From an uncultured Oscillibacter sp. (GTDB lineage: Bacteria > Bacillota > Clostridia > Oscillospirales > Oscillospiraceae), in the NCBI GenBank assembly GCA_947382875.1, contig CANDBG010000011.1:1-54031 (forward strand): a stretch of 54,031 nucleotides of DNA, given 5' to 3'. A program made the position numbers and the translations under genes. Below are positions 695 through 13,682 of the stretch, piece after piece (the stretch's first letter is position 1; each line of letters opens with the position of its first letter). Below the pieces are notes generated by a model. The model was not told where the DNA came from. It searched no databases and was given only the letters and a program-made list of their open reading frames with translations.

Positions 695-1969
695 ATGGCT
701 TTTATCGATAAAGCGCGCATATCCGTCCGCGCCGGGAGCGGCGGGAATGGTGCCGTCTCGTTTCATCGCGAAAAATACGTCGCCGCCGGAGGTCCCGACG
801 GCGGTGACGGCGGACGCGGCGGCTCCATCATCCTCCAGGTTGACGATAACCTCTCTACCTTGATGGACTTCCGCTATAAACGCAAATATACCGCCGGAAC
901 CGGGATGGACGGTCAGGGGAAACGCAAATTCGGCAAAAATGGACAGGACCTTGTTATCAAAGTCCCGCGCGGAACCCTCGTCCGGGATGCCGAAACCAAC
1001 GAAATTATTCAGGATATGAGCAGCAGTGAACCATACGTCCTTTGCCGCGGCGGCCGCGGTGGCTGGGGCAACAGTCACTTTGCTACGCCGACCCGTCAGG
1101 TGCCGCGGTTCGCCAAGGCCGGCCTGCCCGGCGAAAGTCATGATGTCATCCTTGAACTCAAGCTCCTCGCGGACGTCGGCCTGATCGGCTTCCCTAACGT
1201 CGGAAAATCCACCCTGCTCTCCGTGGTCAGCAAAGCTCAGCCTAAAATCGCAAATTACCACTTTACTACCTTGTTCCCAAACCTCGGCGTCGTGTGGGTC
1301 GACGACGGCGTCAGCTTCGTCATGGCCGATATCCCCGGCATCATCGAGGGCGCCAGTGAGGGCGCGGGCCTTGGTCATGACTTCCTCCGGCACATCGACC
1401 GCTGTCGTCTGCTCGTGCATCTCGTGGACGTTTCCGGCAGTGAAGGACGGGACCCTGTGGCCGATTTCGACGCCATTAACGCCGAATTGCAGCAGTACAG
1501 CCCCGCGCTGGCCCAGCGGCCTCAGATCGTCGCCGCCAACAAAACCGATATCCTGGAAAATCCTGAAAACCTTGAACGGCTCCGCGCTCATGTGGAGGCC
1601 CTCGGGTTTCCGCTCCTGGAACTTTCCGCCGCTGCCCACCAAGGCACCCGCGAACTCGTGCAGCAAATCGCACAACGGCTGCCTGCGCTGCCGCCGGTGC
1701 GGGTCTTTGAGCCGGAGTACGTCCCGAAGCCTCCCGCGCCCGGCGACGCCGCTTCTCTCGATATTCAGCATGAGGACGGCGTTTGGCTCGTTGAGGGGGC
1801 CTGGCTTCAGCGGCTTATGGCAAATGTCAACTTCTCCGACTATGAAAGCCGGATGTGGTTCGACAAGGTTCTGCGGGATGCGGGCGTCTTCAAGCGTCTG
1901 GAAGAACTGGGCATTGCTGACGGCGATACCCTTTCCCTGGACGGTTACGAATTTGAATACCAAACCTGA
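695..1969 (+). CDS. obg: GTPase Obg (CgtA), ribosome-assembly GTPase
   Basis: A 424-residue protein with the three Obg parts. The glycine-rich Obg fold covers roughly residues 1-158. The G domain has a P-loop GFPNVGKST at 165-173, a switch region DIPGIIEGASEGAGLGHDFL and an NKTD motif. The C-terminal OCT domain follows from about residue 345. Obg proteins bind the 50S subunit late in assembly and link GTP/ppGpp level to growth and, in Bacillus, to sporulation. Length is normal for Firmicutes. The ATG has an AAGGAGG site 5 nt upstream. It closes the rplU-prp-rpmA-obg cluster. Confidence 0.97.
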   Translation: MAFIDKARISVRAGSGGNGAVSFHREKYVAAGGPDGGDGGRGGSIILQVDDNLSTLMDFRYKRKYTAGTGMDGQGKRKFGKNGQDLVIKVPRGTLVRDAETNEIIQDMSSSEPYVLCRGGRGGWGNSHFATPTRQVPRFAKAGLPGESHDVILELKLLADVGLIGFPNVGKSTLLSVVSKAQPKIANYHFTTLFPNLGVVWVDDGVSFVMADIPGIIEGASEGAGLGHDFLRHIDRCRLLVHLVDVSGSEGRDPVADFDAINAELQQYSPALAQRPQIVAANKTDILENPENLERLRAHVEALGFPLLELSAAAHQGTRELVQQIAQRLPALPPVRVFEPEYVPKPPAPGDAASLDIQHEDGVWLVEGAWLQRLMANVNFSDYESRMWFDKVLRDAGVFKRLEELGIADGDTLSLDGYEFEYQT

Positions 1970-1982
1970 CCGCAAACATCAC

Positions 1983-2022
1983 AAAAACGGACGGCCTTTT
2001 CCGTAAAGACCGTCCGTTTTTT
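1983..2022. terminator. Bidirectional terminator between obg and the GGDEF gene
   Basis: Twelve-nucleotide arms (AAAAACGGACGG and CCGTCCGTTTTT) enclose a 15-nt loop and serve both converging genes. The plus strand ends in six T residues. The A run at the left arm gives a U tract on the minus strand. Confidence 0.85.
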
Positions 2023-2034
2023 ACTCTTTTTCGC

Positions 2035-2952
2035 TTATTTCTCCCGCCACTGTTCCATGGTGTCGTTGCACCAGATCACGCGGTTTCGACCATAGCGTTT
2101 CGCGTCGTACAGCATCGTGTCCGCAATTTTCAGATACGTTTGATAGACGTCGCCGTTCTTCGGCTGTACCGTGATTCCGCCCACGCTGATCGTTACCCAT
2201 TTCATATCCGGCGGCGAATGTACGATGTGCAGGTCTTCCACCGCCTGACGAATGCCTTTCAAATGATCAAAGGAAGTCTGCGCATCGCCGCCCTGGATGA
2301 TTGCTACAAATTCTTCCCCGCCGTACCGCGCCACAAAATCCGTCGTACGCCGCAGGTTCGCGGCCAAAACCCCCGCTACCGCTGAAATTACTTTGTCGCC
2401 CGCCGGGTGCCCATATGTGTCGTTGTACACCTTGAAGCGGTCAATATCAAACATACATACCGAAAAGGGTATTTTCAGGCGGATCGCATCGTTCCATTTC
2501 TGAATGCACTGCTTGTCGTAATGCCGGCGGTTCGCAAGGTTCGTCAGCTCATCGACCATCGCCTCTTTCTCAATCTGCGAACGATAACGGTAGAGCTTTA
2601 CATGGGTATTCACACGCGCCTTGACCACCAACGGGTTGAACGGTTTCGTTATATAATCCACCGCTCCCATGATCAAGCCCTGCACCTCGTGCTCCACATC
2701 CGTCAGGCTCGTGATCAGTATGACCGGCGTGCGACGCGTAAGCTCGAATTCCTGTAATTCCTTCAAGACCGTGAAACCATCCGTGCCCGGCATGATTACA
2801 TCCAGCAGTATCAATGAAAATTCCCCGGTTTTCGCTTTCGCTAACCCTTCCTCCGCGGTGTGCGCGGTGGAAACATCATAGTCTTCCTTGATTATGGAAC
2901 GCAGAACATCTGCCTGAACTAAACTGTCGTCGATAATCAATATCTTTTCCAT
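2035..2952 (-). CDS. Response regulator with GGDEF diguanylate cyclase output
   Basis: A 305-residue protein. Residues 1-120 form a receiver domain with acidic pair D8-D9, phospho-acceptor D51 (LILLDVIMPG), T81/S82 and K103. Residues 130-300 form a GGDEF domain with an intact GGEEF active site at 211-215. An RxxD allosteric I-site (R202-D205) lies 5 residues before it. The enzyme should make cyclic di-GMP from two GTP when phosphorylated and be feedback-inhibited. The start MEKILIIDDS was chosen because AAAGGAG lies just upstream. An in-frame extension of 69 residues further upstream crosses the promoter and has no ribosome site. No histidine kinase is adjacent, so its partner is elsewhere. 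Confidence 0.92.
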   Translation of the reverse strand: MEKILIIDDSLVQADVLRSIIKEDYDVSTAHTAEEGLAKAKTGEFSLILLDVIMPGTDGFTVLKELQEFELTRRTPVILITSLTDVEHEVQGLIMGAVDYITKPFNPLVVKARVNTHVKLYRYRSQIEKEAMVDELTNLANRRHYDKQCIQKWNDAIRLKIPFSVCMFDIDRFKVYNDTYGHPAGDKVISAVAGVLAANLRRTTDFVARYGGEEFVAIIQGGDAQTSFDHLKGIRQAVEDLHIVHSPPDMKWVTISVGGITVQPKNGDVYQTYLKIADTMLYDAKRYGRNRVIWCNDTMEQWREK

Positions 2953-3027
2953 ATGTACTCCTTTCGCCCAGCACCGCAAAACGGAACCGGCTCTCGGTTG
3001 GCTGATCAAGTCACAGCATACGCCTCG

Positions 3028-3056
3028 ATCATATAACATAAATCCAAAAATAGCAA
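3028..3056 (-). promoter_or_regulatory. Sigma-A promoter of the GGDEF response regulator
   Basis: On the minus strand, TTGCTA (3056-3051), a 17-nt spacer and TATGAT (3033-3028) lie about 75 nt upstream of the start codon. Confidence 0.6.
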
Positions 3057-3220
3057 GTCTTTTTTGCCGACATTTGACGACAATTATAAAAAACGGAAGA
3101 ATTTTTAGAATATTTTCCCATCCGGGACATCGCTCCGGCCGCGCGCACCGGCTGGACAAACGCTCTTATCCAGCCAATGCACTGTTATTTTTTTCCAATC
3201 TTCCGCGGAGCCTCCCCCGT

Positions 3221-4741
3221 TTACGCCTCCTCTCCGGCTGCGCACAGCCTCGCACCTGCCAGGGCCATGGCAAAGACAAACCAGAAAATGCACATAACAC
3301 GCGGGTAATTCCACAGATAATCCGCCAGGCCGCACACCATCGCGCCGCACAGCGCCGCCGCCGCCCCACAGGTCAGCGTACGGGCCTCGGAGCTGCCGCT
3401 GTGCCGAACCACGTGCGCCGCCCGTTTGATGTTCCAAAGCATCGCGCTCACAAAACCCAGCAGACCTAAAATTCCTGCTTCAATCCAGACTTGCAGGTAA
3501 ATGTTATGCGCGTGGACGAAGGGTGCATGGCCCCAGTACAGCTTGTACCGCTTTACAAACGACTGTACCGCCGCCGTACCAAGCCCTGCGCCCGCTACCG
3601 GCGACTTTTTGATGATTTTTATGGCCGTCTCGTAGAGCGGAATCCGACTCGCCGTCGATGTGTCTTCCATGTTCGTGATGGTCAGAATGCGGTTCCAGAT
3701 GCTCGCGGGCAGGAAGGGGACCGCCGCTATGCACAGCAGAATAAACAGCGGAATCAGTTTCGGCTTCCACAAAAACACCATGACCGCCATCGCACACGCA
3801 AACCCAATCCAGCTTGCGCGGCCATACGTCATGCCCAAAGCGATGACGCCTAACGCCATAGCCCCGAACGCCGCCAGCTTTCCCAGACCGCTCCGGCTGC
3901 ACAGAACCAACGCAATCGTCAGCGGCAGAAGCATCATCAGCACTTCCGCGTAGGCGTTGGGGTTGTCAAAAAAGGACATCACACGGCTCGGCATATCTGC
4001 GTTTACCTTCAAATCAACATAGGATTTGTTTACTTCCAGGCCCTGCATCCGCTGCATGATCGCGTACAGCGACGACACCGCCACGCAAACGCTTCCGCCT
4101 GCCGCCAGACGCTTCATGTCCCGCGCGGTATGCACAGCGCTTACCGTCACCAGGACGCACAGCGCCGCTGCAATGTGGTACACCAGAAACCGCGGGGACT
4201 GCGACCGGGTGTAGGAAAACACAACCCCCAGGAAAATTGCGCCAAACAGTACCAGCGGGTAAAAGCCGATGGTTTTCACATCGAAGCGGTATGCCTCCCG
4301 GCGCATCGCTCCCGCACAGAACACCAGCAGCAAAAAGACAAACGCCATCAGCGTATAGGCGTTGTTCCAATACTCATAGGGAATGCACCATAACAGCATG
4401 ATCAGCCACGACTGCACAACCGCGGTTTCCTCGCCCACCGCAAACACCAGACGTGCAAAAAAGCTGTCCTCAAAGGTTGGCTGCAAGGCCCGGTAGAGAC
4501 TTTGCAGCAGCAAAATCGGGAGGTTTATCAGAAACGACACAATGCGGCACAGAAGGCTGTCCGCCCACCCTTTGGCGACGCGTCCCTCCCGGCACAGAGG
4601 CCGCAGGAGCGCACTTGTGTCAATCTGTTCGCTGCACCATCCGCCAAGGCGTTCAAACAACCGGTGCAGGCCGCTTTCCTCCCAGGCGGCGCAGAGCGTC
4701 CGCCAGAGATGATACAGGTAACTTTCACGGTAAAGGGTCAT
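3221..4741 (-). CDS. O-antigen ligase / polymerase-like membrane protein
   Basis: A 506-residue polytopic membrane protein with about a dozen hydrophobic segments and a long loop before the last helices. It resembles the O-antigen ligase/Wzy superfamily (WaaL-like), with the loop segment DTSTASRIPLYETAIKIIKK followed by GAGLGTA and a His-containing FVHAHNIYLQVWIEAG motif. In Gram-positives, members join or polymerise cell-surface glycans on the outer membrane face. The start at 4741 (MTLYRESYLY) was chosen because the family-like sequence begins there. The open frame runs further upstream but overlaps the preceding glycosyltransferase gene and looks non-coding. The 23-nt gap to that gene suggests co-transcription. 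The exact substrate is unknown. Confidence 0.8.
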   Translation of the reverse strand: MTLYRESYLYHLWRTLCAAWEESGLHRLFERLGGWCSEQIDTSALLRPLCREGRVAKGWADSLLCRIVSFLINLPILLLQSLYRALQPTFEDSFFARLVFAVGEETAVVQSWLIMLLWCIPYEYWNNAYTLMAFVFLLLVFCAGAMRREAYRFDVKTIGFYPLVLFGAIFLGVVFSYTRSQSPRFLVYHIAAALCVLVTVSAVHTARDMKRLAAGGSVCVAVSSLYAIMQRMQGLEVNKSYVDLKVNADMPSRVMSFFDNPNAYAEVLMMLLPLTIALVLCSRSGLGKLAAFGAMALGVIALGMTYGRASWIGFACAMAVMVFLWKPKLIPLFILLCIAAVPFLPASIWNRILTITNMEDTSTASRIPLYETAIKIIKKSPVAGAGLGTAAVQSFVKRYKLYWGHAPFVHAHNIYLQVWIEAGILGLLGFVSAMLWNIKRAAHVVRHSGSSEARTLTCGAAAALCGAMVCGLADYLWNYPRVMCIFWFVFAMALAGARLCAAGEEA

Positions 4742-4764
4742 ATGGGTCCTCGATTCTTTTCTTC

Positions 4765-5778
4765 TTAAATCCGGTTTTTTATCCGGTATAACCACGTCAG
4801 CGCCCGGAAGTGTTTTCCCCGCACGAGGTTCACAACCAGCTGCTTGTTTTTGCCCAGGCCCTCGGGCCGGAGCTTCTGAATCGCTTCCGCCATGTCCGGA
4901 CGGCGGCAAAGCGTCTCTATGGCCGCCTGACGCTCCCGCAGAGACGCCGGGTTTCCTTTGGCGTACTCGTTGCCAATCGCAATCAGAAGGCCCGCCCAAC
5001 TGGAATTCTCCCGCCACTGGGGACGGGCGTCCGTCAGATTGTAGCGTTGGACAATCTCCGTTTTTCGCTCCATGAAGCGGTCGAAAACCTGCTGGAAATC
5101 CTTCATGTATTTATGCGTTGCGGAATTCGGATTCAGCAGGTAGCGGTACAGCGGCTCCTCTGTTACCACCAGCTTTTCGGCGTTGCAGAAGTATTCCATG
5201 AGGAATATTTCGTCCTCCAGATAGGCCCCCTCGAATCGAATCGCTGCGTTTCGGAGAATCTTCGTTGAAAACAGAAACCGCCAGATGAATCCGTTGAATA
5301 CCGGTACGCGAAGACGTTCGCCCAGGAGAGGGCAGACGATGGATTCCCGAATTTGCTCCCGGCTGTAGACGCCCGCCGGAAGCAGCGGCTCCGGCGACGT
5401 CCCCGCCGCGGATACGTTCCAATGCGCACAGCCGGCGGTGTCCGCGCCGCTTTGCGTCCGGAGCTCCCACAGCGTTTCCAGGGCGCGGGGTTCCAGCTGA
5501 TCGTCGGCGTCCAGAAACGCGATGCAGTCGCCTTTGGCGTTGTCCAGGCCCCGGTTGCGGGCTTCGCTGACGCCCTGGTTCTTTGGCTGACGAAAGACCC
5601 GTATGCGTTCATCCGCTTCCGCAAACCTGGCGCACAGCGTTGGAGAAGCGTCGGTACAACCGTCGTCAATCAACAGGAGTTCCCAGTCCTGGAACGTCTG
5701 GCGCGTTACGCTTTCTACGCATTGAACAAGAAATTTTTCCGCCTGATAGACAGGCACAATTACCGATATGCCCGGCAT
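4765..5778 (-). CDS. Family 2 glycosyltransferase
   Basis: A 337-residue GT2 (GT-A fold) enzyme. The N-terminus ISVIVPVYQAEKFL, the segment LLIDDGCTDASP and the metal/nucleotide motif LDADD at about residue 97 are typical of transferases that move a sugar from a nucleotide donor to a surface glycan or lipid carrier. The C-terminal half is divergent and would set acceptor choice. The ATG at 5778 is preceded by GGGAGG. A GTG five codons upstream overlaps the recR stop and is less likely. It lies between recR and the ligase-like gene, which suggests both envelope genes work on one glycan. Confidence 0.88.
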   Translation of the reverse strand: MPGISVIVPVYQAEKFLVQCVESVTRQTFQDWELLLIDDGCTDASPTLCARFAEADERIRVFRQPKNQGVSEARNRGLDNAKGDCIAFLDADDQLEPRALETLWELRTQSGADTAGCAHWNVSAAGTSPEPLLPAGVYSREQIRESIVCPLLGERLRVPVFNGFIWRFLFSTKILRNAAIRFEGAYLEDEIFLMEYFCNAEKLVVTEEPLYRYLLNPNSATHKYMKDFQQVFDRFMERKTEIVQRYNLTDARPQWRENSSWAGLLIAIGNEYAKGNPASLRERQAAIETLCRRPDMAEAIQKLRPEGLGKNKQLVVNLVRGKHFRALTWLYRIKNRI

Positions 5779-5789
5779 ATTAACCTCCC

Positions 5790-6389
5790 TCACATATCCC
5801 GACGGCCTTCCAGAGCGCGCATCAGCGTTGCGTCGTCGGCGTACTCCAAATGGCTCCCCACCGGAATTCCGTATGCCAGACGCGTCACGCGTACGCGGAA
5901 GGGCTTCAGCAAACGCGCAATGTACATGGCGGTTGCTTCGCCCTCGGTATCGGGGTTGGTGGCCATGATGACCTCCTCGACGCCCCCTTTGGCAACCCGT
6001 TCCACCAGCGGCTTGACCGCAATGTCGTCCGGGCCGACGTGGTTCATGGGAGAAATGACGCCGTGCAGGACATGGTACTGTCCATGGTATTCCCGGCTGC
6101 GCTCAATCGCCACCACATCCCGCGGGTCCGCTACGACGCAGATGGTCTGCGCGTCCCGCTTGGGAGACGCGCAGATCGGGCACAAGCCGCCGCTGGTGAA
6201 ATTCTGACAGACCGGACAGCAGGTAATGCTGTGTTTTGCGTCAAGGATGGCCTCCGAAAATGCCTGGACATCCGCCTCCGGCAGTCCCAGGACGAAGAAC
6301 GCCAGCCGCTGCGCCGATTTGCCTCCGATTCCGGGCAGACGCGCAAACTGTTCCACCAGTTTTTCCAGGGGCGCGGGAAAATACTCCAT
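5790..6389 (-). CDS. recR: Recombination mediator RecR
   Basis: A 199-residue RecR, the usual length. It has an N-terminal helix-hairpin-helix (FARLPGIGGKSAQRLAF), a four-cysteine zinc site (C58, C61, C70, C73) and a Toprim domain from about residue 80 with ADPRDVVAIE and NPDTEGEATA. RecR forms a ring clamp with RecO and helps load RecA at gaps. In most Firmicutes recR follows dnaX and yaaK. Here it lies between rpe and a glycosyltransferase, so the usual order is broken. An AAGGAG site precedes the ATG. Confidence 0.96.
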   Translation of the reverse strand: MEYFPAPLEKLVEQFARLPGIGGKSAQRLAFFVLGLPEADVQAFSEAILDAKHSITCCPVCQNFTSGGLCPICASPKRDAQTICVVADPRDVVAIERSREYHGQYHVLHGVISPMNHVGPDDIAVKPLVERVAKGGVEEVIMATNPDTEGEATAMYIARLLKPFRVRVTRLAYGIPVGSHLEYADDATLMRALEGRRDM

Positions 6390-7482: not shown

Positions 7483-7510
7483 TTGACAAATTTGCACATT
7501 GTTGTATAAT
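7483..7510 (+). promoter_or_regulatory. Strong sigma-A promoter of the rrf2-to-fprA unit
   Basis: Consensus TTGACA (7483-7488), a 16-nt spacer and consensus TATAAT (7505-7510). Rrf2-family regulators usually bind over their own promoter. The AT-rich stretch around the -10 is the likely operator, but no clear dyad was identified. Confidence 0.85.
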
Positions 7511-7545
7511 GGACGAAAAAGGTACATATTCAGGAGGTGGGTCTC

Positions 7546-7932
7546 TTGCTGGTCACACGGGAAATGGATTATGCCCTCCGCATCCTCCGGGCCTTGCATC
7601 AGCACGGCCAGCTCTCCGCCTCCGCCGTCGCGGAACGGGAACATATGCATAAAGCCGTAACGCTCAAGATTCTCAGACGGCTCCATGCCGCCGGAATCGT
7701 CGGCAGCCGGCGCGGCTCCGGCGGCGGCTACCTCTTGGCCCAAAACTGCGAAGCCCTTACTTTGTATGATTTGTTTTCCGCACTTGGGGAAACCATAGTC
7801 ATAAACCGCTGTCAGCAGCCCGGCTACCGCTGCGAACATCCCGGAAGCTGCAACCTCCGCCGGGAGTTCAGCCGTGTACAGTCGGTGCTGGACGGCGAGC
7901 TTCGCCGCACACCCCTCAGCGATCTCTTTTAG
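7546..7932 (+). CDS. Rrf2-family transcriptional regulator with three conserved cysteines
   Basis: A 128-residue Rrf2 protein. The winged helix-turn-helix covers about residues 1-65 (MDYALRILRAL, then VTLKILRRLHAAGIV and the wing SRRGSGGGYLL). Three cysteines follow at C89, C96 and C102 (C-x6-C-x5-C), the arrangement that holds an Fe-S cluster in IscR and NsrR. It is therefore a likely sensor of O2, NO or Fe-S status. The TTG at 7546 was chosen because AGGAGG (7532-7537) is 8 nt upstream; the GTG at 7537 lies inside that site. It heads a co-directional run ending in fprA. Confidence 0.9.
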   Translation: MLVTREMDYALRILRALHQHGQLSASAVAEREHMHKAVTLKILRRLHAAGIVGSRRGSGGGYLLAQNCEALTLYDLFSALGETIVINRCQQPGYRCEHPGSCNLRREFSRVQSVLDGELRRTPLSDLF

Positions 7933-8000
7933 CGCTCACCCAGGGGCCGTCCGGCCCTGCAAGCAAAATACGTTCATAAAATCAGAAGGAGGCACAACGT

Positions 8001-9911
8001 ATGCTGTATCAAACCACACAGGCCCATGAAGAACTCCGGGCAAAGGTTCGGGAATTTGCCGAACGGGAAGTCAAACCGATTGCATTCATGCTGGACAAGA
8101 ACAATGAATTCCCTCACGAAGCCGTGAAAAAAATGGGCGAAATGGGCCTTTTGGGAATTCCCTATGAGAAAAAGTATGGCGGCGCCGGGCTGGACGCCCT
8201 CAGCTACGCCATCGCCGTAGAAGAACTCGCCCGCATCGACGGCGGCACCGGCGTCATTCTCTCCGCGCATACCTCTCTGGGCACATACCCGATTGCCGCC
8301 TTCGGCACCGAGGAACAAAAGAAAAAATACCTGCCGGACCTGTGCAGCGGCAAAAAGCTGGGCGCGTTTGGCCTGACGGAACCAAATGCCGGTTCTGACG
8401 CCGGCGGCACCGAGACCGTCGCCGAGGACCAGGGCGACCACTACCTCCTCAACGGTGAGAAAATCTTCATCACTAACGGCGGCGAGGCCAGCACGTATGT
8501 TGTGTTTGCCGTCACAACGCCCGGCATCGGCACCCGCGGCATCAGCGCGTTTATCGTGGAAAAGGGCTGGGAGGGCTTCACCTTTGAGGAGCATTATGAC
8601 AAGATGGGGATCCGCTCCTCCGCCACCTGCCAGCTGAATTTCAACAACGTCAAGGTTCCGAAGGAAAACCTTTTGGGCAAAGAGGGCCAGGGGTTCAAAA
8701 TCGCCATGGCAACCCTCGACGGCGGACGAATCGGTATCGCCGCTCAGGCGCTGGGCATTGCACAGGGCGCGTTTGAAGCCGCAGTGGAATACTCGAAAGA
8801 GCGTGTACAGTTCGGACACCCGATTTGCCAGCAGCAGACCATCGCGTTCAAAATTGCCGATATGGCAACAAAACTCCGCTGCGCCCGGATGCTGGTTTAC
8901 AGCGCCGCCGAGCTGAAACAGGAACATGTCCCCTATGGCATGGAATCCGCCATGGCGAAGCAGTACGCCTCCGACATTGCCCTGGAAGTCACCAACGATG
9001 CCCTGCAAATATTCGGCGGCAACGGCTACCTCAAGGGTATGGAAGTCGAACGTTTCTACCGTGACGCCAAGATTACCACCATTTACGAGGGCACTAACGA
9101 AATTCAGCGCGTCGTCATTGCCTCCCACATTCTGGGCAAGGCCGGCAAAGCCGACAACGCCGCTCCCACACAGGCCAAAGGTCCCGAAACCGGCGCACGG
9201 AAGCGTCAGATTTTCAAGGACGGCTCCGCTAAGGAGCAGGTTGACGCTCTGGTTGCCAGCCTCAAAAAAGACGGCCACGACTTTACCGTCGGCATTCCAA
9301 TCGACACGCCGATCACCCAGGCGGAACGTGTTGTGAGCGCAGGACAGGGCATCGGCGCAAAGGAAAATATGAAGCTCATTGAGGACCTCGCCAGAGCTGC
9401 GGGCGCGGCGGTTGGTTCCAGCCGTCCGGTAGCCGAGACGCTGAAGTATGTTCCCCTCGACCGCTACGTTGGTATGTCCGGCCAGAAGTTCAAGGGCAAC
9501 CTCTATATTGCCTGCGGCATCTCCGGCGCGATTCAGCACCTCAAGGGCATCAAGGACGCCGCCTGCATCGTGGCGATCAACAAAAACCCCAACGCGAAGA
9601 TTTTCAAGAACTGTGACTACGGCATCGTGGGCGACGTGATGGAAATTCTGCCGCTGCTTACCGCTGCCCTCGACACCGGCGAAAAGGCCCCCGCTCCTCC
9701 GATGGTCAAGATGAAACGCGCCGTACCCAAGAAGGTCACGCCGCCCCGGAAGCTCTATATCTGCAACGGATGCGGTCATGAGTATGACGTCCTTGTCGGA
9801 GACCCCGAAAATGAGGTCAAGCCCGGCACTGCGTTCAAGGACCTCCCCGAAGGCTGGACCTGCCCCCACTGCGGCGAACCGGTTGAGAGCTTCATCGAAA
9901 TCGAGGTGTAA
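8001..9911 (+). CDS. Fusion: acyl-CoA dehydrogenase + ETF-alpha FAD domain + rubredoxin
   Basis: A 636-residue three-part protein. Residues 1-380 are an acyl-CoA dehydrogenase of the short-chain/butyryl type, with GLTEPNAGSDAGG, ITNGGEA, the C-terminal IFGGNGYLKGMEVERFYRDA and the catalytic-base motif IYEGTNEIQ (E363). Residues about 440-557 match the FAD-binding C-terminal domain of ETF alpha (VVSAGQGIG, GSSRPVAE, LYIACGISGAIQH, INKNPNAKIFKNCDYGIVGD). Residues 585-636 are a rubredoxin with C588, C591, C621 and C624 and the PGT.F.DLP.GW.CP.CG pattern. The ETF-alpha N-terminal domain and ETF beta are missing. The chain can in principle pass electrons from acyl-CoA through two flavins to a one-electron Fe site, or the reverse. 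An AGAAGGAGG site precedes the ATG. The order of electron flow is inference. Confidence 0.93.
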   Translation: MLYQTTQAHEELRAKVREFAEREVKPIAFMLDKNNEFPHEAVKKMGEMGLLGIPYEKKYGGAGLDALSYAIAVEELARIDGGTGVILSAHTSLGTYPIAAFGTEEQKKKYLPDLCSGKKLGAFGLTEPNAGSDAGGTETVAEDQGDHYLLNGEKIFITNGGEASTYVVFAVTTPGIGTRGISAFIVEKGWEGFTFEEHYDKMGIRSSATCQLNFNNVKVPKENLLGKEGQGFKIAMATLDGGRIGIAAQALGIAQGAFEAAVEYSKERVQFGHPICQQQTIAFKIADMATKLRCARMLVYSAAELKQEHVPYGMESAMAKQYASDIALEVTNDALQIFGGNGYLKGMEVERFYRDAKITTIYEGTNEIQRVVIASHILGKAGKADNAAPTQAKGPETGARKRQIFKDGSAKEQVDALVASLKKDGHDFTVGIPIDTPITQAERVVSAGQGIGAKENMKLIEDLARAAGAAVGSSRPVAETLKYVPLDRYVGMSGQKFKGNLYIACGISGAIQHLKGIKDAACIVAINKNPNAKIFKNCDYGIVGDVMEILPLLTAALDTGEKAPAPPMVKMKRAVPKKVTPPRKLYICNGCGHEYDVLVGDPENEVKPGTAFKDLPEGWTCPHCGEPVESFIEIEV

Positions 9912-9916
9912 GCCGC

Positions 9917-10789
9917 ATGGTCACAAAAGAGCAAATCCTTGCAGTTTTGGAACCGTCCAGAATTCCCTGCGTCCGTATTGCCCCTGAACCGGGCCGGACG
10001 CCCTCCCCTACAGACAGCAAATTCGGCGGGGAATACTACCTCCCCGCCGGGGTGGAACCGTCGGATTTGGAATTCCTGGCCCAGATCAATCTGGCGCAGG
10101 TCCCGCCCCTGGACGGCTTTCCGGAAACCGGTTTGCTGCAATTCTTCCTCTGCACCGAAGACGAAGCCTTTGAGAACTTCCTGGACGAAGGCTCGGCGTA
10201 TTTTTCCGACAGCGGCTTCTTTCAAGTGCGCTGGTATCCGGAGGCTCCGGCGGACGGTCCCGGTCGGGAAAATGCACTCCCGGAGAAACGCTGGAATATG
10301 GACAAGGTTTCCGGCGGAATGTGCTTCCTGCCGGATGAGCAGGGCGCGACCATTGCCTTGGGCGAATCCGGCGTGTTCTTTGACCTTGGCTTCGAGTACC
10401 TGGAAGATGCCTTGACGGCTCTTTTCCAGAACGATTTCGACGAAGACGATTATGACGATGAGGACGAAGAGGACGAGAATGAAGACGAAGACACGGAAAA
10501 CGCCTACGACCTGAGCGGCTGCGAGGATACCGACCGGTTCTGCCGCGATTTTGGCAACTGGGGGTTTCAGTTCGGCGGACATCCCGCGCTGCGGCAAGGG
10601 GAGGTCCGTCTGGAGGACGAGGCGTTTGAGGCGTATTCGGAGCTGCTGTTTCAGTACGACCTGACCTCTGTGGACGCGCAGTCGCCCCAGTATCTGGAAG
10701 CGGATACCTTTGGATTTTTCATCAAGCCCGAAGACCTCGCCGCCCGCCGCTTTGACGATCTCCTGATGGTTCACCATAATTGCTTTTAA
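9917..10789 (+). CDS. YwqG-like DUF1963 protein
   Basis: A 290-residue protein that fits the DUF1963/YwqG family. An N-terminal SKFGGEYYLPAG is followed by FLAQINLAQVP and ETGLLQFFL. A C-terminal GGHPALRQGEVR and LLFQYDL repeat the family pattern. Residues about 173-195 are an unusually acidic insert made almost only of Asp and Glu. The function of the family is unknown. It begins 5 nt after the fusion gene's stop codon, so it is very likely on the same mRNA. Whether it has a role in the redox unit cannot be told from sequence. Confidence 0.8.
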   Translation: MVTKEQILAVLEPSRIPCVRIAPEPGRTPSPTDSKFGGEYYLPAGVEPSDLEFLAQINLAQVPPLDGFPETGLLQFFLCTEDEAFENFLDEGSAYFSDSGFFQVRWYPEAPADGPGRENALPEKRWNMDKVSGGMCFLPDEQGATIALGESGVFFDLGFEYLEDALTALFQNDFDEDDYDDEDEEDENEDEDTENAYDLSGCEDTDRFCRDFGNWGFQFGGHPALRQGEVRLEDEAFEAYSELLFQYDLTSVDAQSPQYLEADTFGFFIKPEDLAARRFDDLLMVHHNCF

Positions 10790-10807
10790 GGGAGGGATTT
10801 CTTTCCT

Positions 10808-11458
10808 ATGAGCTTTGCGGATGAGATACGAATCCAAGCTAAAAGCAAGGAAGAACTCGCACAAGAGGAAACTCAACGGCAAAAGCAAAGGGAGGAAGAA
10901 TATCGGCAAACCGCTATTAATAGTTTTGAAAGAATCAAGTCCGCCCTGAAACAGCATATTTCAGAGGCTGCGCAAAAGGGACAATTTACCCAAAACAGTC
11001 AATATGGTAAGATTATACAGGACACGATTATTCTTGAAAGTACCTTTAGGGACCGGGAAGGTCCGACTATTAGTTATCTTTTAGACTATTGTATTCTGAA
11101 AAAGGCGGAAGTATTGAAACATCGGAACAGAAAATTTTGGGGGAAATATGAAGATTTGTGGCGGCTCTCCATAAAGGCAAAATACGATTGGTTTGGAGAT
11201 GTTCTTCAAAAAGCAATTGCCGATTTGCAGCAGGAAGGTATCAAGGCTTCTTTTACACTGGAATGGCAAATTGGCCGATGGAACACTGCTGTAAAAACCC
11301 AGATATATCATTTCCCCTTAGAGCAGCTGATTACCGGGTTTCAAACGGAAGTATGGCTTGATGCAAATCTACGCAAATCCAATTCAGAGGGCAGGGTTTT
11401 TCTGGACACATACAATGATGAAACAAAAATCTCCTGCACCTATCAATTCAGCTTTTAA
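10808..11458 (+). CDS. Unknown AT-rich protein with charged N-terminal coiled coil
   Basis: A 216-residue protein that I do not recognise. Residues about 10-45 are rich in Lys, Glu, Gln and Arg with heptad-like spacing and probably form a coiled coil. The rest looks like a mixed soluble domain rich in aromatic residues, with no signal peptide or membrane segment. Its base composition is clearly more AT-rich than both neighbours, which suggests recent gain. It has a GGGAGGG ribosome site, starts 18 nt after the DUF1963 gene and ends 23 nt before fprA, so it is co-transcribed. Confidence 0.7.
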   Translation: MSFADEIRIQAKSKEELAQEETQRQKQREEEYRQTAINSFERIKSALKQHISEAAQKGQFTQNSQYGKIIQDTIILESTFRDREGPTISYLLDYCILKKAEVLKHRNRKFWGKYEDLWRLSIKAKYDWFGDVLQKAIADLQQEGIKASFTLEWQIGRWNTAVKTQIYHFPLEQLITGFQTEVWLDANLRKSNSEGRVFLDTYNDETKISCTYQFSF

Positions 11459-11481
11459 CAACAATAAAGGAGGCAGCTTCT

Positions 11482-12699
11482 ATGTATAATTACCGTCAAG
11501 TAACCAACGACCTCTACTGGGTCGGGGCAAACGATCACCGTCTGGCCCTCTTTGAGAACATCCACCCCCTCTATCACGGCGTCAGCTATAACGCGTACGT
11601 CCTCCTGGACGAACAATCCGTCCTCTTTGACACCGCCGACTGGTCCGTCAGCCGGGAGTTCCTGGCAAACGTCAAGGCCGTGCTGAACGGCCGCCCCCTG
11701 GATTACATGGTCATCAACCATGTCGAGCCGGACCATGCCGCCTCCATTGAGGAAATCCTCCTCCGCTGGCCCGACGTCAAAATCATCACCACCCCCAAGG
11801 CCGTGACGCTCCTCAACCAGTTCGGCTTTGACCTGGACCCCAACCGGGTCGACGAGGTCAAGGAGGGCGATACCCGCTGTTTCGGCAAGCATACGATTGC
11901 CTTCGTATACGCCCCCATGGTCCACTGGCCCGAGGCAATGGTTTCCTTTGACACCACCAACGGCGTTCTCTTTTCCGCCGACGCCTTCGGCTCCTTCCGC
12001 GCCCTCGACGGCAAGCTCTTTGCCGATGAATTCGACTTTGACCGCGAGTGGATTGACGACGCCCGCCGTTATTATACCAATATCGTCGGCAAGTACGGCC
12101 CCCAGGTGGTGGCGCTGCTGAACAAGGCCGCGACCGTTGTCGGACTTGATAATATTAAAATGCTCTGCCCGCTTCATGGTCCAGTCTGGCGGAAGGACCT
12201 GGGCTATATCATCGACAAATACACCCACTGGGCGACCTACGAGCCGGAGGAAAAAGGCGTCATGATCGTTTACGCCTCTATGTACGGCAGCACCGAAAAT
12301 GCTGCGGAAGTCCTGGCCGCCAAGCTTGCCGAACGCGGCGTGACCAATACGCGGCTGTATGATGTGTCCAGCACTCACGTCAGCTATCTGATTTCCGACC
12401 TGTTCAAGTACAGCCATATGGTGCTTGCGTCCGTAACCTACAATTTGGGCATTTTCCCGCCGATGCATAATTTCCTGATGGACATGAAAGCGCTGAACCT
12501 CCAAAAGCGTACTGTGGCCCTGCTGGAAAACGGTTCCTGGGCGCCGCGCTCCGGAGCGTTGATGCGTGAGGCTTTGGAGCAGCTGAAGCATATCGACATC
12601 CTTGACGACGGTTTGTCCATTGCCTCCTCCCTCCGGGAACAGAACATCAGCGAAATGGACGCCCTCGCTGACGCAATTGCCGCCAGTATTAACAAATAA
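11482..12699 (+). CDS. fprA: A-type flavoprotein FprA (flavodiiron O2/NO reductase)
   Basis: A 405-residue flavodiiron protein. The metallo-beta-lactamase-like domain (about 1-255) has the full set of diiron ligands: H80, E82, D84, H148, D167 and H232 (HVEPDH, MVHWPE, SADAFG, LHGPVW). The flavodoxin domain (258-405) has the FMN loop YASMYGSTENAA. These enzymes reduce O2 to water and/or NO to N2O in anaerobes and take electrons from rubredoxin. It is the last gene of the rrf2 unit, whose second gene encodes a rubredoxin domain, and a terminator follows directly. An AAAGGAGG site precedes the ATG. Whether O2 or NO is preferred cannot be read from sequence. Confidence 0.95.
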   Translation: MYNYRQVTNDLYWVGANDHRLALFENIHPLYHGVSYNAYVLLDEQSVLFDTADWSVSREFLANVKAVLNGRPLDYMVINHVEPDHAASIEEILLRWPDVKIITTPKAVTLLNQFGFDLDPNRVDEVKEGDTRCFGKHTIAFVYAPMVHWPEAMVSFDTTNGVLFSADAFGSFRALDGKLFADEFDFDREWIDDARRYYTNIVGKYGPQVVALLNKAATVVGLDNIKMLCPLHGPVWRKDLGYIIDKYTHWATYEPEEKGVMIVYASMYGSTENAAEVLAAKLAERGVTNTRLYDVSSTHVSYLISDLFKYSHMVLASVTYNLGIFPPMHNFLMDMKALNLQKRTVALLENGSWAPRSGALMREALEQLKHIDILDDGLSIASSLREQNISEMDALADAIAASINK

Positions 12700-12709
12700 G
12701 GCGTATGCT

Positions 12710-12744
12710 GGAGAAAAACGGACCGTTTCCGGTCCGTTTTCTCC
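12710..12744. terminator. Bidirectional terminator after fprA
   Basis: A near-perfect palindrome (GGAGAAAAACGGACCG paired with CGGTCCGTTTTCTCC) lies between the converging fprA and YlbJ-like genes. Confidence 0.85.
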
Positions 12745-12761
12745 TTTCCCTGTACGGGGCG

Positions 12762-13682
12762 TCACAGGACGTAAAACGACACCGCAAACGCCAATACAAA
12801 TGAAAAAATTCCTTGCAGAATCTTACCGCACACATAGGGACGCAGACGCAAACCGCTGCCGTCCAGCACGGAGGCCGTCTGACATAAGATGGAAATTCCT
12901 CCGAAGCCCGCACACGCTGAAGCGATCACAAAGCCCAGCCGGTTCGCCGAAAGCAGCGGCGTCAGCGAAAACAGCTCCAATAGTCCAACCAGAAACGGTC
13001 CTGCCGGGGCTTCCAGGCCGGAGAGCGGACTGGCCAGTATGTAAAAAAACACGATAAACCCGCAGATTGGAACCATCGACATGGCCGCGCCCTGTACCGC
13101 TTTCACAAACGCCGCTGCAAAGGAAATCTCCTGTGGTCCGTTGGAAAACCGCGGGGGGCTTTGACGCGTTTTCGGGTTCGTTCCGCGGACGCAGAGGCCC
13201 GTCAGCAGCGCCGACAGCACGTGAATCAGCCACAGCCATACCCCCGTACGGACGCTGCCAAACAATCCGCTGCCCAGCACGCTGATTAGAAAAACCGGAT
13301 TCGAATTGTTGCAGAACGCTAACAGACGTTCCGCTTCCGCCGTGGTCAGGAGCTTTTTTTCGTACAGATTGACCGCCGTACGCGCTCCAACCGGATAGCC
13401 CCCCGCCAGCCCCAACAGCAGCGCTGTGCTGGCGGTTCCGGGCAGGCTGAACAGCGTCATGAAGCCCGCGAAATGCGGCGAAATCCATTCCCCAAAACCC
13501 AGTGAAATCAGCAGTCCCGACACCACCATGAACGGATACAGCGCCGGTATGACCGCATTTGCACACAGCGTCAGAGCTTCCTCCGCCGCCGTACGAATGC
13601 GTTCCGCGTCCGCCAGAAACCATACCAGAACCCCGCATAACACCAGACAGGCGTCTGTGCGCCAGCGCTTTTTCATCTTCAT
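12762..13682 (-). CDS. YlbJ-like sporulation integral membrane protein
   Basis: A roughly 306-residue polytopic membrane protein. It carries the YlbJ signature: a glycine-rich helix LAGGYPVGARTAVNLYE, then a segment with AEAERLLAFCNNSNPVFL. In Bacillus, YlbJ is made under sigma-E and is needed for normal spore formation. The family has the nucleoside-transporter gate fold. It is shorter than typical 400-residue YlbJ. The start is uncertain: ATG 13682 and ATG 13676 are both possible and neither has a strong ribosome site; the open frame runs to 13778. It is divergent from yqfC, another sporulation gene, with 94 nt between. Confidence 0.82.
   Translation of the reverse strand: MKMKKRWRTDACLVLCGVLVWFLADAERIRTAAEEALTLCANAVIPALYPFMVVSGLLISLGFGEWISPHFAGFMTLFSLPGTASTALLLGLAGGYPVGARTAVNLYEKKLLTTAEAERLLAFCNNSNPVFLISVLGSGLFGSVRTGVWLWLIHVLSALLTGLCVRGTNPKTRQSPPRFSNGPQEISFAAAFVKAVQGAAMSMVPICGFIVFFYILASPLSGLEAPAGPFLVGLLELFSLTPLLSANRLGFVIASACAGFGGISILCQTASVLDGSGLRLRPYVCGKILQGIFSFVLAFAVSFYVL

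What the first reader, a model, noticed from the sequence alone, without database searches (positions are those of the whole stretch)
7483..12744. Candidate acyl-CoA to O2/NO reduction system: Rrf2 sensor, dehydrogenase-ETF-rubredoxin fusion and FprA in one unit
A consensus promoter, five co-directional genes with gaps of 68, 5, 18 and 23 nt, and a terminator define one unit. Flavodiiron proteins are known to take electrons from rubredoxin, and the fusion supplies a rubredoxin domain. The Rrf2 protein has three cysteines spaced as in Fe-S sensors such as NsrR. The simplest reading is that acyl-CoA (for example butyryl-CoA) serves as reductant for O2 or NO removal when the Fe-S sensor is damaged. 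This would give a strict anaerobe an NADH-independent detoxification route. The flow of electrons is inferred, not shown.
Basis: partly seen in the sequence, partly recalled or inferred. Interest (0 to 1): 0.8.

Follow-up and report, generated by a model that had tools for sequence, protein, structure and literature searches.

The report
Butyryl-CoA-powered oxygen removal operon
This gut-type Oscillospiraceae genome carries an operon for a recently described enzyme pair that lets strict anaerobes use a fermentation intermediate, butyryl-CoA, to turn oxygen into water, together with its likely iron-sulfur regulator; the system is already in print, and what is added here is a predicted control site on the DNA.

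Summary
In detail: Rrf2 gene, acyl-CoA dehydrogenase/EtfA-half/rubredoxin fusion, DUF1963 gene, orphan gene and class A flavodiiron gene lie head to tail with gaps of 68, 5, 18 and 23 nt, behind a 12/12 sigma-70 promoter and before a strong hairpin. Fusion plus flavodiiron protein is butyryl-CoA oxygen oxidoreductase (BOOR), described for Fusobacterium nucleatum in 2024; a July 2026 preprint already links it to an Rrf2 factor, naming Oscillospiraceae. So: a new member of a known kind. In relatives the flavodiiron gene directly follows the fusion (44 of 44 and 76 of 76 loci where visible); Rrf2 is adjacent only in a subset. New here: (1) a conserved operator-like site abutting the -10 box (window 7511-7525, not 7483-7510), within two mismatches at 18 of 23 promoters of this Rrf2 subtype; (2) of 11 genomes without adjacent rrf2, the two with a site at the fusion gene have a distal rrf2, the other nine have no close one; (3) three rubredoxin-less fusions lack the flavodiiron neighbour; (4) the orphan gene looks like a recent AT-rich insertion.

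The parts
7483..7510 (+). sigma-70 promoter TTGACA-16 nt-TATAAT
   Evidence: 12 of 12; a 16-nt spacer in 22 of 22 promoters of this rrf2 subtype in which -35/-10 was found, window included
7511..7525 (.). predicted Rrf2 operator core GGACGAAAAAGGTAC abutting the -10 box (clade consensus GTACYAAAAWRGTAC)
   Evidence: two mismatches to the clade consensus; binding not tested
7546..7932 (+). Rrf2-family regulator (BOOR-associated); D8, C89, C96, C102
   Evidence: TTG start chosen by Shine-Dalgarno spacing and by alignment with relatives
8001..9911 (+). BCR-type fusion: acyl-CoA dehydrogenase + EtfA FAD-binding half + rubredoxin, 636 aa
8016..9131 (+). acyl-CoA dehydrogenase part (residues 6-377); catalytic-base position E363 invariant in 30 of 30 aligned fusions
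   Evidence: role of the Glu recalled from the family
9312..9554 (+). ETF_alpha FAD-binding domain (residues 438-518)
9756..9893 (+). rubredoxin domain (residues 586-631; C588, C591, C621, C624 invariant in 30 of 30)
9917..10789 (+). DUF1963 protein, accessory; the same gene sits at this place in three of 80 named loci
10808..11458 (+). orphan protein, 41% G+C against 57-61% in the other four genes; probable recent insertion into the operon
11482..12699 (+). class A flavodiiron protein, BOOR partner; H80-x-E82-x-D84-H85, H148, D167, H232 present
   Evidence: ligand roles recalled
12710..12744 (+). intrinsic terminator hairpin

Best explanation
A BOOR operon. The fusion (BCR) oxidises butyryl-CoA (or a close short-chain acyl-CoA) to crotonyl-CoA; electrons pass from its dehydrogenase FAD to the EtfA-half FAD and the rubredoxin iron, then to the FMN and diiron site of the flavodiiron protein, which reduces O2 to water. 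The Rrf2 protein, probably carrying an iron-sulfur cluster, sits on a site directly downstream of the -10 box and represses the whole operon, its own gene included; oxidation or loss of the cluster releases it. Shown here: genes, domains, ligand residues, conserved pairing, conserved site. Shown elsewhere for the homologous pair: butyryl-CoA-dependent O2 reduction without NO reduction. Inferred: the activity in this organism, the cluster, repression, the signal, and the order of cofactors.
For: Same architecture and partner as BOOR. The flavodiiron gene directly follows, co-directional, in 44 of 44 rubredoxin-bearing fusions among 48 non-window sampled loci (of the other four, one ends at the contig end and three lack rubredoxin), and in 76 of 76 named loci with room, of 80 (gaps up to 879 nt). 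The three rubredoxin-less fusions have no flavodiiron neighbour, though one of them has only 0.6 kb of downstream sequence. Catalytic Glu and four rubredoxin Cys are invariant in 30 of 30. The genome has 3-hydroxyacyl-CoA dehydrogenase-bcd-etfB-like and HpaB-family-bcd-etfB-like clusters, so a probable butyryl-CoA source. Regulator: adjacent in 31 of 80 named loci. Operator-like site: 1.48 bits per column against 0.64 in the spacer, 79% against 43% pairwise identity, over 21 loci. Sites with at most 1 mismatch occur in 16 of 81 searched upstream regions (15 with adjacent rrf2 plus L127) and in none of 909,283 background nt. Where rrf2 is not adjacent, a site at the fusion gene goes with a distal rrf2 (2 of 2) and its absence with no close rrf2 (9 of 9), 11 genomes chosen from 49. 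Independent precedent for the Rrf2 link: PMC13404960 (passages).
Against: No expression, binding or enzyme data for this organism. In the window two genes separate the partners. Rrf2 is absent near most fusions outside the clade. Five of 23 subtype rrf2 promoters have no site within three mismatches. The window's own Rrf2 departs from its kin (loop two residues shorter than in 22 of 22 subtype relatives; Arg at the fourth-ligand position where 35 of 38 have Cys or His) and its site has two mismatches, so its regulation could be weakened. The motif was defined on the same promoters in which it was counted, and these are related; its dyad symmetry is modest. The two distal rrf2 genes have no such site of their own, and one of the two matching fusion-gene sites (L126) has three mismatches, a level also reached 28 times in the background. 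F. nucleatum sequences were not at hand for a direct comparison.
Confidence: 0.78

Rival explanations
1. The unit serves nitric oxide removal: Rrf2 is an NsrR-like NO sensor and the flavodiiron protein an NO reductase fed by the fusion.
For: The Rrf2 has D8, as in NsrR (comparison from PMC13404960). One family genome (G091, L228) has a related Rrf2 next to a 62%-identical flavodiiron gene and a prismane/CO-dehydrogenase-family (probably hybrid-cluster) gene, with no fusion found. Many flavodiiron proteins reduce NO.
Against: The characterised BOOR showed no NO reductase activity (PMC12288474). The proteins miss the NCBIfam cut-offs for NsrR (28 of 182 bits) and for NorV (224.2 of 635).
Confidence: 0.12
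2. The fusion works mainly as an acyl-CoA reductase or dehydrogenase in fermentation, and the flavodiiron neighbour is a safety valve rather than its main partner.
For: The dehydrogenase part scores well against acryloyl-CoA reductase (488.8 bits, below the 640 cut-off), and a rubredoxin-less fusion lies between what look like hbd and CoA-transferase genes (L099; names by eye).
Against: Each of the 44 + 76 rubredoxin-bearing fusions with visible downstream sequence has the flavodiiron gene next (the two sets overlap); the genome has separate bcd-etfB-like clusters.
Confidence: 0.07
3. Rrf2 is a bystander in the operon and does not control it.
For: It is absent next to most fusions outside the clade; the window copy has an atypical ligand loop.
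Against: Conserved site at the promoter, and the correlation of site and regulator in genomes where rrf2 is distal.
Confidence: 0.2

Closest known systems
Butyryl-CoA oxygen oxidoreductase (BOOR: BCR + FDP) of Fusobacterium nucleatum (Bystrom and Wolthers 2024, known to me only through passages of PMC12288474, PMC12630350 and PMC13404960)
   Same: Bcd + EtfA C-terminal half + rubredoxin fusion; class A flavodiiron partner in the same operon
   Different: Window has rrf2 in front and two extra genes between the partners; activity not tested; direct sequence comparison not made
Rrf2 factor C0FN14 next to BOOR in Roseburia inulinivorans and gut Clostridia (PMC13404960, passages)
   Same: Rrf2 protein with D8 and three Cys next to BCR/FDP; Oscillospiraceae named there
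   Different: Window copy has CX6CX5C and Arg at the fourth position; five operator-type words searched for in that text gave no occurrence
IscR type 1 operator ATASYYGACTRWWWYAGTCRRSTAT (PMC3899308, passages)
   Same: Best relatives' sites match the 13-nt core with one mismatch (L120, L126, L143) at a promoter-overlapping position
   Different: The window site has 4 mismatches in that core and 10 in 25; the protein is not an IscR by NCBIfam cut-off
Anaerobic NO reductase flavorubredoxin NorV
   Same: Flavodiiron core and diiron ligands
   Different: No fused rubredoxin on the flavodiiron protein; below the equivalog cut-off

Membership tests
BOOR | BCR architecture: acyl-CoA dehydrogenase + EtfA FAD half + rubredoxin | tested here: met
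   catalytic Glu and four Cys
BOOR | class A flavodiiron protein encoded with BCR | tested here: met
   same unit but 1573 nt downstream of the matched end of the fusion
BOOR | sequence orthology to the F. nucleatum pair | not tested
BOOR | butyryl-CoA-dependent O2 reduction, no NO reduction, alpha4-beta4 complex | not testable with these tools
   needs purified proteins
Rrf2 (Pfam PF02082) | Rrf2 winged helix over the cut-off | tested here: met
   89.6 bits against 30; just under the NCBIfam superfamily cut-off (72.8 of 73.3)
BOOR-associated Rrf2 (C0FN14 type) | D8 and three Cys next to BOOR | tested here: met
   D8, C89, C96, C102; identity to C0FN14 itself not tested
Fe-S Rrf2 sensor | cluster bound in vivo | not testable with these tools
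   needs spectroscopy; loop and fourth position atypical in the window copy
NsrR | NCBIfam equivalog cut-off (NF008240) | tested here: not met
   28 of 182 bits
IscR | NCBIfam equivalog cut-off (TIGR02010) | tested here: not met
   42.4 of 207.55 bits
NorV flavorubredoxin | NCBIfam equivalog cut-off (NF008887) | tested here: not met
   224.2 of 635 bits

The most novel reading that the evidence does not exclude
In the Oscillibacter/Flintibacter-like clade a dedicated Rrf2 repressor controls essentially one target operon, BOOR, through its own operator (consensus GTACYAAAAWRGTAC) locked to the -10 box of a near-perfect promoter with a fixed 16-nt spacer. Breathing O2 at the expense of butyryl-CoA is thus switched by a private one-operon iron-sulfur switch that can move away from its target while the site stays; in the window that switch may be loosening.
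Probability: 0.5. Interest if true: 0.45.

Novelty: new member of a known kind. Interest (0 to 1): 0.35.

Why it matters
BOOR would let butyrate-forming gut anaerobes spend butyryl-CoA, not NADH, on O2 removal, and so links oxygen leakage in the gut to butyrate output. A preprint proposed Rrf2 control; in its main text I found no binding site named (five words searched). The site predicted here makes that proposal testable with one DNA fragment. The pairing counts and the rubredoxin-less fusions support the rubredoxin as the link between fusion and flavodiiron protein.

Tried and rejected
Own-genome check for a separate EtfA: only the fusion matches ETF_alpha. But both complete bcd genes (C10, C93) are followed by an etfB-like gene that runs off the contig end, and two further bcd-like matches are cut at contig ends. 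The absence is therefore taken as an assembly break (87.5% complete genome), not as biology. RnfC search: only partial matches, the best at a contig start and below the cut-off, not used.

Wider regulon: a 20-genome pattern search with up to 2 mismatches gave 32 sites; the reversed-pattern control gave 27. Of the 32, 21 have at most 1 mismatch. By their letters 19 of these are the operon sites read, one precedes a second rrf2 (L204), and one (L188) has no Rrf2 in its 3-kb locus. The control is not split by mismatch number. The other 11 sites are taken as noise; no wider regulon is claimed.

Recognition helix against operator type: another Rrf2 group ('FAYKIL' helix) shows CTTGACAAAATTTATCAAG-like sites over the -35 box (read by eye), but L068 breaks a simple rule, so no coupling is claimed. 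Dyad symmetry of the window-type site is only modest (53-56% complementary at its centre, and for arms up to 10 another centre scores higher, 58%). Five window-type loci (L103-L105, L109, L125) have no site within 3 mismatches of the 15-mer; L104, L105 and L109 show a variant after the -10 box.

Structure prediction of the fusion from 30 rows: mean pLDDT 71.4, pTM 0.49; too weak to place domains, so no fold search was run. PHROGs on P0003 and P0004: nothing.

Full report
WHAT IS THERE. The five genes, gaps, promoter and terminator are as described. The fusion is a complete short-chain acyl-CoA dehydrogenase (best solved matches: acyl-CoA dehydrogenases 5ol2 chain C, 5lnx and 4l1f, and butyryl-CoA dehydrogenase 1buc), followed by the FAD-binding half of EtfA and a rubredoxin. 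In 30 of 30 aligned fusions (29 of the 80 named loci plus the window) the Glu of IYEGTNE (E363) and the four rubredoxin Cys are invariant. The best solved matches of the flavodiiron protein are flavorubredoxins, a nitric oxide reductase (1ycf) and a rubredoxin:oxygen oxidoreductase (1e5d), over both domains, with the H-x-E-x-D-H, H, D and H ligands present (ligand roles recalled).

WHAT IS KNOWN. A fusion of butyryl-CoA dehydrogenase, EtfA C-terminus and rubredoxin, bicistronic with a flavodiiron gene, was characterised in Fusobacterium nucleatum as butyryl-CoA oxygen oxidoreductase (BOOR). [quoted passage not shown] the review says many Firmicutes, butyrogenic gut ones included, encode it (PMC12288474, passages seen; the 2024 primary paper is not held). 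A preprint of July 2026 (PMC13404960, passages) reports an Rrf2 factor next to BOOR. Of 149 neighbourhoods, 123 have the fusion and 115 the flavodiiron protein; Oscillospiraceae are named; it proposes repression relieved by oxidation of the cluster. Its main text holds none of the words operator, palindrom-, binding site, promoter or inverted repeat. Both the enzyme and the regulator link are therefore in print.

CONSERVATION. At E <= 1e-165 the fusion query matches in 17 of 150 genomes of the window's family (one match lacks rubredoxin, one is cut by a contig end) and in 32 of 391 of its class (one genome's only match, and the second copy of another genome, lack rubredoxin), the window included in each. 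The one same-genus genome listed (G082, 98% complete) has none. In 48 non-window loci the flavodiiron gene directly follows in 44 of 44 rubredoxin-bearing fusions whose downstream side is visible. L033 ends at the contig end. L032, L098 and L099 lack rubredoxin and have no flavodiiron neighbour (L032 has only about 0.6 kb downstream). In 80 named loci (Oscillibacter, Dysosmobacter, Flintibacter, Lawsonibacter, Clostridium and others; the best 80 of 259) it follows in 76 of 76 with room; four end within 7 nt. Rrf2 is adjacent in 31 of 80 named loci (three of the others have less than 500 nt upstream), 22 of them of the window's subtype, and in 7 of 48 sampled loci, once divergent. In 150 family genomes the closest Rrf2 relatives (E at most 2e-20) are the window, G068, G133, G146, and one each in G111 (contig C10) and G091. 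The first four adjoin a fusion, which in G133 is cut by the contig end. The G111 C10 copy precedes a prismane/CO-dehydrogenase-family gene, and G091's precedes a flavodiiron and a prismane-family gene.

THE CONTROL SITE. Among 23 rrf2 genes of the window's subtype (22 named loci and the window), 22 have a -35/-10 pair at a fixed 16-nt spacing (L125 has none in 150 nt). Directly after the -10 box, 18 of the 23 have GTACYAAAAWRGTAC within two mismatches (15 within one; the window, L106 and L114 with two), and L104, L105 and L109 a variant. Over 21 loci (L103 dropped, incomplete slice; L125 has no promoter) this 15-mer carries 1.48 bits per column, against 0.64 in the spacer and 0.56 further downstream; mean Rrf2 identity is 68%. 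Sites with at most one mismatch: 16 of the 81 upstream regions searched (the sixteenth is L127, without adjacent rrf2), 0 in 909,283 nt of the same loci elsewhere, where two mismatches occur 3 times and three 28 times. The motif was derived from these promoters, so the fairer test is elsewhere. Of 11 genomes (chosen from the 49 named loci without adjacent rrf2), the two whose fusion promoter has the site (L126, three mismatches, after TATAAT; L127, one) have a 64-65% identical rrf2 on another contig. The nine without the site have none (one has a 29% match). The chance of this split is 1 in 55. L143, L152 and L153 also show weaker sites and were not tested for a distal rrf2. Against: the two distal rrf2 genes have no site of their own. 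Some relatives' sites resemble the IscR type 1 core, down to one mismatch in 13, but the window's has four.

THE WINDOW COPY. Its Rrf2 reads C89-X6-C96-X5-C102-XX-R. The 22 subtype relatives read CX6CX7CXXC, and over all 38 aligned Rrf2 proteins 35 have Cys or His at the last position by the regex used; of the other three, L142 and L162 seem to be misread by it, and the third is the window. DUF1963 at this place recurs in L116, L125 and L126; six others (L124, L127, L128, L131-L133) have 543-682-nt gaps there. The orphan gene has 41% G+C against 57-61% for the other four genes and no match in 100 other family genomes. This fits insertions at a tolerant spot of the operon.

SUBSTRATE SUPPLY. 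A 3-hydroxyacyl-CoA dehydrogenase-bcd-etfB-like cluster and a HpaB-family gene (4-hydroxybutyryl-CoA dehydratase-like by recall)-bcd-etfB-like cluster lie at contig ends, so crotonyl-/butyryl-CoA metabolism is probably present.

VERDICT. A BOOR operon with its Rrf2 factor: new member of a known kind. O2 removal with butyryl-CoA is the likely job, NO removal unlikely; the added piece is a testable operator.

Noticed in passing
window 10808-11458: Orphan 216-aa gene, 41% G+C in a 56% G+C window, no Pfam or PHROG match, no match in 100 other genomes of the family: probable recent insertion between BOOR partners.
   Followed up: partly
L032, L098, L099: Acyl-CoA dehydrogenase/EtfA-half fusions without rubredoxin and without a flavodiiron neighbour; L099 lies between what look (by eye) like hbd and CoA-transferase genes. 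They could be a separate fermentation enzyme.
   Followed up: partly
L228 (G091) 1539-5441, strand -: Related Rrf2 followed by a flavodiiron gene 62% identical to the window's and a prismane/CO-dehydrogenase-family gene, with no fusion found: possible NO-type variant of the cluster.
   Followed up: partly
L229 (G111) 3550-5874, strand -: Second Rrf2 of the same group directly upstream of a prismane/CO-dehydrogenase-family gene.
   Followed up: partly
L031 (G111), upstream of rrf2, towards the fusion: Repeated palindromes CTTGATAAATTTTATCAAG between a divergent rrf2 and the fusion; similar sites over the -35 box in L022, L025, L033, L170: apparently a second operator class (by eye).
   Followed up: no
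L204 (G550:C6:29990): Second rrf2 of the window's subtype with the same operator-like site (one mismatch) in its promoter; no fusion recognised by eye among the complete ORFs of the 3-kb locus, not searched further.
   Followed up: partly
G000 contigs C10, C93, C25, C50: bcd or etfB-like genes run off the ends of four contigs, so the assembly seems broken at similar bcd-etf copies; absence of EtfA in this genome is not reliable.
   Followed up: yes
window 7974-9869 (-) and 11455-12765 (-): Long antisense open frames (631 and 436 aa) over the fusion and flavodiiron genes; probably shadows of high third-position G+C.
   Followed up: no
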